Of a DNA stretch of 64,000 nucleotides, positions 22,946 through 24,338 are shown piece by piece. The notes beneath the pieces were generated by a model that saw only the letters and a program-made list of their open reading frames with translations, ran no database searches and had not been told where the DNA came from. This DNA comes from Brenneria bubanii (GTDB taxonomy: Bacteria; Pseudomonadota; Gammaproteobacteria; Enterobacterales; Enterobacteriaceae): NCBI RefSeq assembly GCF_022378355.1, contig NZ_JAKMAJ010000002.1:62001-126000 (forward strand). Reading direction: 5' to 3'. The translations under genes were made by a program, and so were the position numbers. Numbering within the stretch: the stretch's first letter is position 1; the number at the start of each line of letters is the position of its first letter.

Positions 22946-24063
22946 TATTCATCCCCCCGCGTTTTGTAGGTCAACACGGGCTTTAAACGGGCGATCGGCT
23001 CGATAAGCCCGGCCGCCGTCATGGACGATATTACGCTGTCGATGGGTTTATAGGCCTCCGGCGCTTCCTGAAAAATCAACTGTTTATTCTGGCAAATAAC
23101 CCGGCTGCCCAGGGCGGTGCGCGCTAGCGTCTGCATGTTATCGCGCTGGGCCAGGCGCGCCTTGCAGGCGGAGCGCATCCATTTGCGGCCGGCGCCGTGC
23201 GCCAGGGAATACAGGCTAACGGCATCAGACCGCGGCTGAACCAGATAGCTGTAATCGCCGCGCGACCCCGGAATGATCACCATCCCCTGATCGGCCGGGG
23301 TGGCGCCTTTGCGATGCAGCCAGCCGGCAATCCCGTCGACGGTCGCCGGCGTCACCAGATTGTGATTTACATCCAACAGCGCTTCGCCGTCGGCCCGCCA
23401 GCGGCTCAGCATGCGCTGTGCGATGCAGCGTCGGTTATCACGAGCAAACGTCAGCGCCCGCTGATGTTGCGCCAGATAGTCCCGCGCCTGCGGCGTATTT
23501 TCTTCCAGCCCCCGATGGCCATGCTCCCGCAGCTGTTTTTCCAGAATGGACTGGCCTAAACCACGCGAGCCGCTGTGTATCAGCAATAACAGCGTCTTAC
23601 TGTCGGGCAACAGGGTATTGAAAAGCGTCGGCTGATAAATCTGCTCAACGCTTTGCAATTCGGCAAAGTGATTTCCACCGCCGATGGTGCCCAGCGAATG
23701 ACGGAATGCGGCAAAATCGTCTGGAAGATGCGGCGCGTCATCCAACGGCCCGTCAATATTGCCTAGCTGTTTGTCGAGCTTATCCAGCGATACTTTGTTG
23801 GCTTTCAAACTGGTGCGCCATAGCGCCATGCCGCAGCCAATATCATTACCGACCAGCGCCGGGTAAAAACGCCGGCGGGAAAAAAACGCCGCCCCGATGG
23901 GATAACCGCGTCCGGGGTGTAAATCCGGCATACCGGAAACCCGAACCATGTCGGGAAGTTGAGAGGTTTTAATAAGTTGTTGGACTGCGTTATCTTCAAT
24001 CCAGGTGTTTTCCGACGCGATGAGATTCACCTGCGGCGAAATAAAACGAATGGCATTGCCCAT
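22945..24063 (-). CDS. rtcB: RNA ligase RtcB, PrfH-linked type (RtcB2)
   Basis: 372 residues, shorter than canonical E. coli RtcB (about 408). All catalytic landmarks are visible: PDLHPGRGYPIG, GNDIGCGM with D74 and metal-ligand C77, GGGNHFAE (H132), HSGSRG (H163), LDVNHNLV (H234) and LAHGAGRKWMR with H289, the residue guanylylated in the family. It seals 2',3'-cyclic phosphate and 5'-OH RNA ends with GTP and Mn. No RtcR or RtcA gene is nearby, which fits the damage-repair pair rather than the rtcBA operon. The Shine-Dalgarno sequence AGGA, seven bases before the ATG, lies in the arm of a hairpin (see leader). Confidence 0.93.
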   Translation of the reverse strand: MGNAIRFISPQVNLIASENTWIEDNAVQQLIKTSQLPDMVRVSGMPDLHPGRGYPIGAAFFSRRRFYPALVGNDIGCGMALWRTSLKANKVSLDKLDKQLGNIDGPLDDAPHLPDDFAAFRHSLGTIGGGNHFAELQSVEQIYQPTLFNTLLPDSKTLLLLIHSGSRGLGQSILEKQLREHGHRGLEENTPQARDYLAQHQRALTFARDNRRCIAQRMLSRWRADGEALLDVNHNLVTPATVDGIAGWLHRKGATPADQGMVIIPGSRGDYSYLVQPRSDAVSLYSLAHGAGRKWMRSACKARLAQRDNMQTLARTALGSRVICQNKQLIFQEAPEAYKPIDSVISSMTAAGLIEPIARLKPVLTYKTRGDE

Positions 24064-24071
24064 AGATCAAT

Positions 24072-24167
24072 CCTGCCGATCAATGTTGAAAAAATGATGT
24101 GGCAGGCCAAAAACCGGGCTAAAACGCAAAAATGAGGTTGTGCGGAGTTAATCCTGGAATAGCCTGC
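24072..24167 (-). promoter_or_regulatory. Leader with alternative hairpins covering the rtcB Shine-Dalgarno
   Basis: Three segments on the transcript: segment 1 GCAGGC (24162-24167, inside the leader reading frame), segment 2 GCCTGCC (24101-24107) and segment 3 GGCAGG (24072-24077, overlapping the rtcB AGGA). Segments 2 and 3 pair as CCTGCC/GGCAGG plus an inner ATCA/TGAT, hiding the Shine-Dalgarno. Segments 1 and 2 pair as GCAGGC/GCCTGC, extendable by a G-U and an A-U pair, which would free it. The two structures exclude each other. That they control rtcB is inference. Confidence 0.4.
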
Positions 24168-24192
24168 AAAGTGCCAAAGAATAATATTTCAT
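24148..24192 (-). CDS. Putative 14-residue leader peptide of rtcB-prfH
   Basis: ATG at 24192 follows a perfect AAGGAGGT Shine-Dalgarno by four bases and opens a frame for MKYYSLALCRLFQD ending TAA. The next gene on the strand is rtcB, 84 bases downstream. Codons 9-11 contain segment 1 of the alternative hairpins, so ribosomes translating the peptide would block the 1-2 pairing. The peptide is too short for homology; the strong ribosome binding site is the main support. Confidence 0.45.
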   Translation of the reverse strand: MKYYSLALCRLFQD

Positions 24193-24338
24193 AGAGACCT
24201 CCTTGCAGTGTTCGTGAATTGGAATGAAAAACGGCCGCATACTACCTCAGAGAATGCGCGCCCGCAACGATTTTTAACGCGCGGCTAAACCCTGAGAGCC
24301 GACTGACGAAGCGCGCTACACTAAAAAGGCGAATAACC

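What the first reader, a model, noticed from the sequence alone, without database searches (positions are those of the whole stretch)
24061..24204. A translation-sensing leader may control the RtcB-PrfH ribosome repair pair
Seen: a 14-codon frame with a perfect AAGGAGGT ribosome binding site, then two mutually exclusive hairpins; one (CCTGCC/GGCAGG plus ATCA/TGAT) hides the rtcB Shine-Dalgarno, the other uses GCAGGC inside the short frame and frees it. Known: PrfH and RtcB2 rescue and religate ribosomes cut in the 16S decoding centre. Inference: while intact ribosomes translate the leader they block the freeing hairpin and rtcB stays off; when translation of the leader fails, the freeing hairpin forms and the repair genes are made. 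This would couple repair to the damage itself. I do not know of such a leader being described.
Basis: partly seen in the sequence, partly recalled or inferred. Interest (0 to 1): 0.75.

Follow-up and report, generated by a model that had tools for sequence, protein, structure and literature searches.

The report
Ribosome-stall leader of rtcB2-prfH repair operon
A tiny reading frame and a switchable RNA hairpin in front of two ribosome-repair genes appear to turn those genes on when ribosomes start but cannot move on; a leader of the same family is already known in Pseudomonas aeruginosa, and here it proves to be a shared part of this repair operon in many bacteria.

Summary
The leader (minus strand, 24208-24061) holds a 14-codon frame (MKYYSLALCRLFQD*) with a perfect Shine-Dalgarno (SD), a hairpin hiding the rtcB2 SD, and a rival hairpin between the frame and the same arm. 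A covariance model finds the leader upstream of rtcB2 in 75 of 80 fetched loci. The rival hairpin covaries clearly; SD hiding covaries in the relatives' register, not in the window's exact register. In silico, ribosomes held at codons 1-4 make the rtcB2 SD cheap to open (1.6-3.1 kcal/mol); further on it is costly (7.2-9.4). Over 39 leaders the step falls where the ribosome edge meets the arm, though about 15 are flat. Colicin-E3-cut ribosomes initiate but make almost no peptide beyond about eight residues (PMC2615495), which fits. The leader kind is not undescribed: P. aeruginosa PA5471.1, controlling armZ (an rtcB2) and prfH by ribosome stalling, belongs to this family. New: family-wide conservation, arm map, link to ribosome damage. 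No expression data.

The parts
24239..24267 (-). Promoter-like TTGCGG-N17-TAGTAT upstream of the leader (start expected near 24232)
   Evidence: 7 of 12 matches in the window; best sites in 39 non-redundant relatives average 7.87 against 6.30 in shuffles, 22 of 39 with a first hexamer that begins TTGC, 23-53 nt before the leader SD. One search's stricter scan found none.
24201..24208 (-). Arm 0: CTGCAAGG, includes the 5' part of the leader SD (AAGGAGGT 24204-24197)
   Evidence: paired with arm 1 in the MFE; own-versus-cross duplex energy -10.18 against -9.30, 0 of 5000 permutations; no covariation by column counting.
24148..24192 (-). Leader frame MKYYSLALCRLFQD* (14 codons and stop)
   Evidence: In 38 of 39 non-redundant leaders the ATG-to-arm-1 distance is 18, 21 or 24 nt, 20 in one; 13-16 sense codons; TAA 26, TGA 8, TAG 5.
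24162..24171 (-). Arm 1: CTTTGCAGGC inside the leader frame; pairs with arm 0 (24171-24164) or arm 2 (24167-24162)
   Evidence: helix 1:2 is 92.3% paired, 4 of 6 pairs with changes on both sides; the only helix RNAalifold predicts on A1.
24153..24157 (-). Arm 1b: CCAGG next to the leader stop; could extend helix 1:2 with CCCGG 24118-24114 (A.C mismatch in the window)
   Evidence: own -6.40 against cross -4.94, 0 of 5000 permutations (window itself only -4.0); perfect CCAGG/CCTGG in L004, L011, L016.
24114..24118 (-). Arm 2b: CCCGG, possible partner of arm 1b
24101..24107 (-). Arm 2: GCCTGCC; pairs with arm 1 (ON) or with arm 3 (OFF)
24079..24098 (-). Inner part of the SD-hiding hairpin: ATCA 24098-24095 with TGAT 24082-24079, U-rich loop between
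   Evidence: MFE structure.
24071..24077 (-). Arm 3: GGCAGGA, contains the rtcB2 SD (AGGA 24074-24071)
   Evidence: This register is not kept in relatives; their SD-hiding helix (type CCAAUCC/GGAUUGG) lies a few bases further 3', 73.3% paired, 5 of 7 pairs with changes on both sides.
22945..24063 (-). rtcB2 (RNA ligase RtcB family, PRK09588 / TIGR03073)
22328..22945 (-). prfH (peptide chain release factor H, TIGR03072)

Best explanation
The 24208-24061 leader is a four-arm translation attenuator of the rtcB2-prfH operon and a member of the same leader family as P. aeruginosa PA5471.1. At rest the leader SD (arm 0) pairs with the end of the leader frame (arm 1), and arm 2 pairs with the rtcB2 SD (arm 3): both frames closed. 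A healthy ribosome that opens 0:1 runs over arm 1 to the stop codon, so arm 2 stays on arm 3 and rtcB2 stays off. A ribosome that initiates but halts at about codons 1-4 holds arm 0 open and leaves arm 1 free; 1:2 forms, arm 3 is released and rtcB2-prfH is translated by ribosomes that still work. Ribosomes cut in the decoding centre (colicin E3 type), which start nearly normally but halt after a few codons, would be a fitting signal, so damage would call its own repair. Shown here: conservation of the leader, covariation of 1:2 and of an SD-hiding helix, arm order, direction of the predicted switch. Taken from papers: stalling-dependent control in P. aeruginosa and the behaviour of E3-cut ribosomes. 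Inferred: that control is at translation of rtcB2 rather than at termination of transcription, and that rRNA cleavage is a natural signal.
For: Leader model hits upstream of rtcB2 in 75 of 80 loci. Helix 1:2 92.3% paired with compensatory changes (GCAGG/CCUGC, GCGGG/CCCGC, GCAGA/UCUGC), SD-hiding helix of the common register 73.3%, 29 double-change cells against 9.6 shuffled; own arms pair better than arms swapped among 39 leaders for each helix, 0 of 5000 permutations (loop control 269 of 5000, itself close to 5%). Mask-folding: window SD opening cost 1.6-3.1 kcal/mol with the P site at codons 1-4, 7.2-9.4 from codon 5 on, 4.2 free; 39 leaders: early 3.63, late 4.92, difference 1.29 against -0.09 in shuffles, p = 6e-7, same with footprints of 12, 15, 18 nt; the jump falls where the leading edge meets arm 1 (-0.82 to +0.49). 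Of ten leaders outside that set eight go clearly the same way, L097 weakly, L102 is flat (L112, L012 and L014 have close kin in the set). Arm 1 is kept as RNA while the frame over it changes (L092, L152, L153: FAG/FAD instead of LCR). Terminator-like hairpins in 1 of 39 leaders, 5.0 expected, none in the window. E3-cut ribosomes: initiation about 75%, halt after a few codons (PMC2615495).
Against: No expression data. 15-16 of 39 leaders show no predicted switch above 0.5 kcal/mol, among them L058, which goes the other way; Pectobacterium L032, Lonsdalea L035 and the Xenorhabdus leaders are flat although they are near or fairly near kin of the window. 104 of 468 shuffled controls reach the difference of their own leader (0 of 12 for the window). 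The window's own SD-hiding register is not shared or covarying. Single-sequence folding is not beyond chance. Helix 0:1 shows no covariation by column counts. In the common register helices 1:2 and 2:3 overlap by one column only, so they need not exclude each other there as they do in the window. Statistics do not correct for relatedness. The switch predicted for L124, the PA5471.1-like leader, is small (3.3 to 4.4). Recent P. aeruginosa papers draw transcription termination, not SD hiding (PMC13041342).
Confidence: 0.72

Rival explanations
1. Transcription attenuation: the same arms decide between a terminator and an antiterminator ahead of rtcB2, as drawn for P. aeruginosa PA5471.1.
For: Stated or proposed for P. 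aeruginosa in PMC12057347 and PMC13041342. A U-rich stretch 24094-24089 follows arm 2 in the window.
Against: No terminator-like site in the window; 1 of 39 leaders has one, 5.0 expected by shuffling. The last arm overlaps the rtcB2 SD. Other authors call the P. aeruginosa case translational attenuation (PMC3575510, PMC3884212). Rho-dependent termination cannot be judged from sequence.
Confidence: 0.2
2. Sequence-specific arrest peptide: the conserved L-C-R stretch halts ribosomes for a particular small molecule, and the RNA switch follows from that halt.
For: LC is present in 30 of 39 leader peptides.
Against: Arm 1 is read in another frame in L092, L152 and L153 (FAG/FAD); Xenorhabdus has LF, Comamonadaceae-type leaders have no LCR; arm letters covary with arm 2, and the third base of the C/F codon is C in 39 of 39, so the RNA is what is kept. 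The P. aeruginosa relative responds to many unlike inhibitors (PMC3884212).
Confidence: 0.07
3. General elongation sensor (same RNA mechanism as the best explanation): any early elongation trouble, such as amino acid shortage, antibiotics or uncharged tRNA, is the signal and rRNA cleavage is only one of many.
For: P. aeruginosa armZ responds to many ribosome inhibitors and to translation mutants (PMC12057347, PMC3575510); E. coli K-12 ykfJ responds to 4-azaleucine (PMC3516279).
Against: None strong; the runway of 6-8 codons before arm 1 suits ribosomes that fail within a few codons, but does not single out cleavage. The regulated products act on cleaved 16S rRNA (PMC9223846).
Confidence: 0.5

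Closest known systems
PA5471.1 leader of armZ-PA5470 in Pseudomonas aeruginosa
   Same: Upstream of the orthologous rtcB2 (PRK09588 cluster) and a release-factor gene (prfH); 13-residue frame; same CTTTGCAGGCT arm at the same place in L124; ribosome stalling on the frame is reported to turn the operon on (PMC13041342, PMC3516279 passages; L124).
   Different: There the frame lies about 250 nt upstream (129 nt here), transcription termination has been proposed, and the best-known outcome is efflux through MexZ/MexXY. Here arm 3 follows arm 2 after 23 nt and no terminator is seen.
ermC/ermB-type translational attenuators
   Same: Four arms; a stalled ribosome opens the first pairing and releases the SD of the target gene (recalled; PMC8274638 seen only in a search listing).
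   Different: erm leaders rely on a drug-dependent arrest peptide late in the frame (recalled); here the end of the frame is an RNA arm, the peptide is not kept, and stalls must be early (codons 1-4).
E. coli rtcB2-prfH (ykfJ-prfH in K-12)
   Same: The same leader (MTNPLSMTLCRPFQD*) in E. coli SMS-3-5; a leader match in 5343 of 5426 E. coli genomes; K-12 ykfJ induced by 4-azaleucine (PMC3516279).
   Different: In K-12 strain MC1061 rtcB2 and prfH are annotated as incomplete and the gene starts further from the leader.

Membership tests
PA5471.1-type leader of armZ/rtcB2-prfH | Lies upstream of an rtcB2 (PRK09588) gene followed by prfH | tested here: met
   NF007153 PRK09588 552.9 bits, TIGR03073 562.7, TIGR03072 300.8.
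PA5471.1-type leader of armZ/rtcB2-prfH | Short leader frame (about 13 codons) with its own strong SD | tested here: met
   14 codons, AAGGAGGT.
PA5471.1-type leader of armZ/rtcB2-prfH | Shared leader sequence and arms with PA5471.1 | tested here: met
   L124 (13 aa, Q3, F4, 254 nt upstream) and the window share CTTTGCAGGCT at the same place; R1 scores L124 only 18.6 bits (E 0.003), probably because of its longer spacer.
PA5471.1-type leader of armZ/rtcB2-prfH | Ribosome stalling on the frame raises expression of the operon | not testable with these tools
   Predicted direction agrees.
PA5471.1-type leader of armZ/rtcB2-prfH | Transcription terminator between frame and gene (proposed by some authors, not agreed) | tested here: not met
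   None in the window, 1 of 39 relatives. Not treated as defining: PMC12057347 calls it a proposal needing further study, PMC3575510 calls the case translational attenuation (passages).
ermC-type translational attenuator | Alternating 1:2, 2:3, 3:4 pairings with the target SD in the last arm | tested here: met
   Arms 0:1, 1:2, 2:3; 0:1 without covariation, window register of the last pairing not conserved.
ermC-type translational attenuator | Drug-dependent arrest peptide in the leader | tested here: inconclusive
   Peptide not kept when the frame over arm 1 shifts (L092, L152, L153), which speaks against one; drug dependence itself was not testable. Works like, not filed as a member.
Any Rfam family | Match to a covariance model | tested here: not met
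   No match up to E = 10 in 24020-24300.

The most novel reading that the evidence does not exclude
The leader is the built-in, ancestral sensor of the RtcB2-PrfH ribosome-repair operon across Gamma- and Betaproteobacteria: ribosomes with a cut decoding centre initiate on its perfect SD, halt in its first few codons, and by halting there flip the RNA and switch on the enzymes that release and religate them. The 6-8-codon runway before arm 1 would be matched to the few-codon reach of cleaved ribosomes, and antibiotic induction of efflux through armZ in P. aeruginosa would be a later use of this damage sensor.
Probability: 0.4. Interest if true: 0.82.

Novelty: new member of a known kind. Interest (0 to 1): 0.6.

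Why it matters
If true, a known but isolated oddity of P. aeruginosa drug response becomes the general control of a ribosome-repair operon found in many species, and explains why an RNA ligase and a release factor respond to ribosome trouble. It gives a direct, testable answer to how a cell notices cut ribosomes: it lets them try to translate a short test message. The arm map allows clean tests in harmless laboratory strains with reporters.

Tried and rejected
Rejected: chance hairpins (the single fold, z -1.23, would allow it; comparison does not). Rejected: leader frame as a relic of an older gene (pattern kept in 101 of 111 upstream regions). Rejected: strict arrest peptide (frame over arm 1 shifts in three leaders). 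Rejected: a known Rfam family. Not supported: leader used by other genes. R1 over 369 genomes of the class gave one strong hit, the window's own (87.1 bits); 28 other hits in 24 genomes had at most 27.3 bits. Nine of the 28 were printed and judged by eye only, none looked like a leader before rtcB2; for two of them (L178, L184, near contig ends) the printed stretch may not be the match. How many of the 369 genomes hold rtcB2 was not counted, and R1 missed the diverged leader of G428 (L152) there. Led nowhere: column counting of helix 0:1, spoiled by an SD register shift; the window's own SD-hiding register on A1 (no covariation). The four Comamonadaceae-type leaders (L096, L097, L100, L102) are not found by R1; GGRCUGGG in the frame faces CCCRGUCC downstream by eye in some, and in folding L096 and L100 go the expected way, L097 weakly, L102 not. 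Of 11 genomes over the TIGR03073 cut-off in 398 of the phylum, upstream regions of six loci were read (L152-L157): L152 and L153 have the leader, L154, L156, L157 were not resolved, L155 is cut by a contig end; L149 and L150 were not read.

Dropped before counts: of 101 regions with the pattern 8 were left out of the folding set (L053 for its shifted start; L007, L010, L020, L025, L045, L087, L099 for more than 165 nt between frame and rtcB2), leaving 93, reduced to 39 at 88% identity. The ATG was chosen without regard to frame, except L031, set by hand. The 30 loci L002-L031 overlap in part with the 80.

Full report
What is there. On the minus strand between bsmA (24339-24659, +) and rtcB2 (24063-22945, -) lies a leader with, in order: a weak promoter-like TTGCGG-N17-TAGTAT (24267-24239), a perfect SD AAGGAGGT (24204-24197), a 14-codon frame MKYYSLALCRLFQD* (24192-24148), arm 2 GCCTGCC (24107-24101) and the rtcB2 SD inside arm 3 GGCAGGA (24077-24071). 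The genes downstream are RtcB2 and PrfH by curated models. Folding of the single sequence is not beyond chance (25 of 200 shuffles fold as well).

Relatives. Scans for RtcB2 gave 80 loci in genome contigs (capped at the best 80) and 30 loci from 392 genomes of the family (54 of 392 genomes over the family cut-off). Of these with the window, 101 of 111 upstream regions hold a short frame with SD and the arm CTTTGC(A/G)G or close variants. A covariance model (R1) built from 39 non-redundant leaders (alignment A1) finds the leader upstream of rtcB2 in 75 of the 80 loci; not found are L047 (contig edge) and four Comamonadaceae-type loci; and in 30 of 30 of L002-L031. The training set is part of these. 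Not in training: E. coli L112 102.2 bits (near kin of the trained L011), L153 57.9, L012 84.3, L014 85.2, L152 17.6, L124 18.6. Organisms named whose loci have the leader include Pectobacterium, Lonsdalea, Serratia, Xenorhabdus, Providencia, Morganella, Budvicia, Pseudomonas, Tahibacter, Aquitalea, Ralstonia, Cupriavidus, Niveibacterium and Gallionellaceae. In the window's own genus 1 of 10 genomes has a match to rtcB2; G003 keeps the leader at 88% identity, with a decayed leader SD, in front of a fused remnant of rtcB2 and prfH.

Covariation. On A1 helix 1:2 is 92.3% paired; 2 of 6 pairs never vary and 4 have changes on both sides. An SD-hiding helix in the register common to relatives (type CCAAUCC/GGAUUGG) is 73.3% paired with 5 of 7 such pairs. 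Double-change cells for both: 29 against 9.6 in shuffles, 0 of 500; slid by one column the paired share falls from 82.1 to 42.0 or 51.4%. RNAalifold on its own predicts helix 1:2 and nothing else. The window uses a different register for hiding the SD, CCTGCC/GGCAGG: all six pairs form only in the window, five in L032 and L048, four in 13 more, without covariation (3 double changes against 2.6). So hiding of the SD by bases at and behind arm 2 is general, but the exact hairpin of the finding is a local version. Arms of one leader pair better with each other than with arms of other leaders for 0:1, 1:2, the extension 1b:2b and 2:3, 0 of 5000 permutations each; a loop control gave 269 of 5000, near 5%, a warning that relatedness, corrected in none of these tests, lifts such numbers. 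Helix 0:1 shows no covariation by columns, partly because the SD lies in two registers.

RNA or peptide. In 38 of 39 leaders the start lies 18, 21 or 24 nt before arm 1, so the frame is kept. LC is in 30 of 39 peptides. But in L092, L152 and L153 arm 1 is read in another frame (FAG or FAD instead of LCR) while the RNA arm stays. So the frame seems to need translation, and the peptide sequence seems to matter little.

Predicted switch. I forbade pairs under a ribosome footprint and computed the cost of opening the rtcB2 SD (-13 to -7). In the window: free 4.2 kcal/mol; P site at codons 1-4 1.6-3.1; from codon 5 on 7.2-9.4. Over 39 leaders: early 3.63, late 4.92; difference 1.29 against -0.09 with the middle shuffled, Wilcoxon p = 6e-7; 23 of 39 above +0.5, 1 (L058) below -0.5, 15 between; 104 of 468 shuffles reach the value of their own leader, 0 of 12 for the window. 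Footprints of 12, 15, 18 nt agree (23, 24, 23 of 39). Ordered by distance, the mean cost relative to free RNA steps from -0.82 to +0.49 as the leading edge reaches arm 1; the last P-site codon that leaves arm 1 free is 3 (18 leaders), 4 (12) or 5 (9). Of ten leaders outside the set eight go clearly the same way, L097 weakly, and L102 is flat; L112, L012 and L014 have close kin in the set. Pectobacterium L032, Lonsdalea L035 and the Xenorhabdus leaders are flat, a result against a uniform mechanism, the more so as the first two are near kin of the window. The leader's own SD costs 6.27 kcal/mol to open on average, 7.06 in the window.

Termination or translation. No terminator-like site in the window and 1 of 39 leaders with one, 5.0 expected. 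With the target SD inside the last arm this favours translational control; Rho is not excluded.

What is known. Papers were read as passages only. PA5471.1 is a 13-residue leader about 250 bp upstream of PA5471 (armZ) in P. aeruginosa; PA5471 belongs to the PRK09588 cluster and shares a message with PA5470, a predicted release factor; the E. coli K-12 homologue ykfJ responds to 4-azaleucine (PMC3516279). Ribosome-targeting drugs and translation defects are reported to act through PA5471.1 and to raise armZ; residues 3 and 4 are Q and F (PMC13041342; PMC12057347; PMC3884212). The primary paper (Morita 2009) is not held. RtcB2-PrfH protects E. coli ATCC 25922 from colicin E3 and acts on cleaved 16S rRNA (PMC9223846); that paper has no occurrence of 'leader' or 'upstream', and its promoter passages concern constructs. 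The 2006 paper on the operon has no occurrence of 'leader' or 'attenuat' (PMC1586002). E3-cleaved ribosomes initiate at about 75%, halt after a few codons and are expected, by extrapolation, to make essentially no peptide longer than about eight residues (PMC2615495).

Judgement. The window leader is a new member of the PA5471.1 kind. What I did not find in print (searches in a library that lacks most subscription journals) is its conservation across rtcB2-prfH operons, the arm map with arm 0, and the link from early-halting cut ribosomes to the repair genes. The mechanism is inferred from sequence and folding; no expression or structure probing was available.

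Noticed in passing
G003:C1:965287-965442 (L144, L148): A congener keeps the leader at 88% identity but the operon is a deletion remnant (first codons of rtcB2 run into the middle of prfH) and the leader SD has decayed.
   Followed up: partly
L007, L010, L017, L020, L045; L206, L207 (E. coli): Insertions sit between arm 2 and the rtcB2 start in several lineages; in the first five with a repeated element (cttgaagtatgacgag). 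In E. coli L206 (MC1061) and L207 extra length is seen from coordinates only. They may uncouple or alter the switch.
   Followed up: partly
window 24083-24065; L032, L035, L043: In the window, Pectobacterium, Lonsdalea and Xenorhabdus the rtcB2 SD sits in a TTGATC-N8..9-GATC palindrome that could present it in a small loop; this may explain the flat predicted switch in the latter three.
   Followed up: no
E. coli genomes: The leader is matched in 5343 of 5426 E. coli genomes, although rtcB2-prfH is truncated in K-12 and some other strains (PMC1586002; MC1061).
   Followed up: partly
L096, L097, L100, L102: Comamonadaceae-type leaders (MQKNTTSLWAGSAV... and like) have entirely different arm letters (GGRCUGGG facing CCCRGUCC by eye in some) in a like arrangement.
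   Followed up: partly
window 20935-21020 (-): RpsF leader (RF02893, 107.3 bits) upstream of rpsF.
   Followed up: no
window 61051-61140 (-): OmrA-B family sRNA (RF00079, 92.4 bits).
   Followed up: no
L154, L157: Distant rtcB2 genes (other families of the phylum) also have a short frame with an SD-like sequence upstream (MQNLESYTPGYVGL*, MTTISARPERVSA*); whether these are the same leader is open.
   Followed up: no
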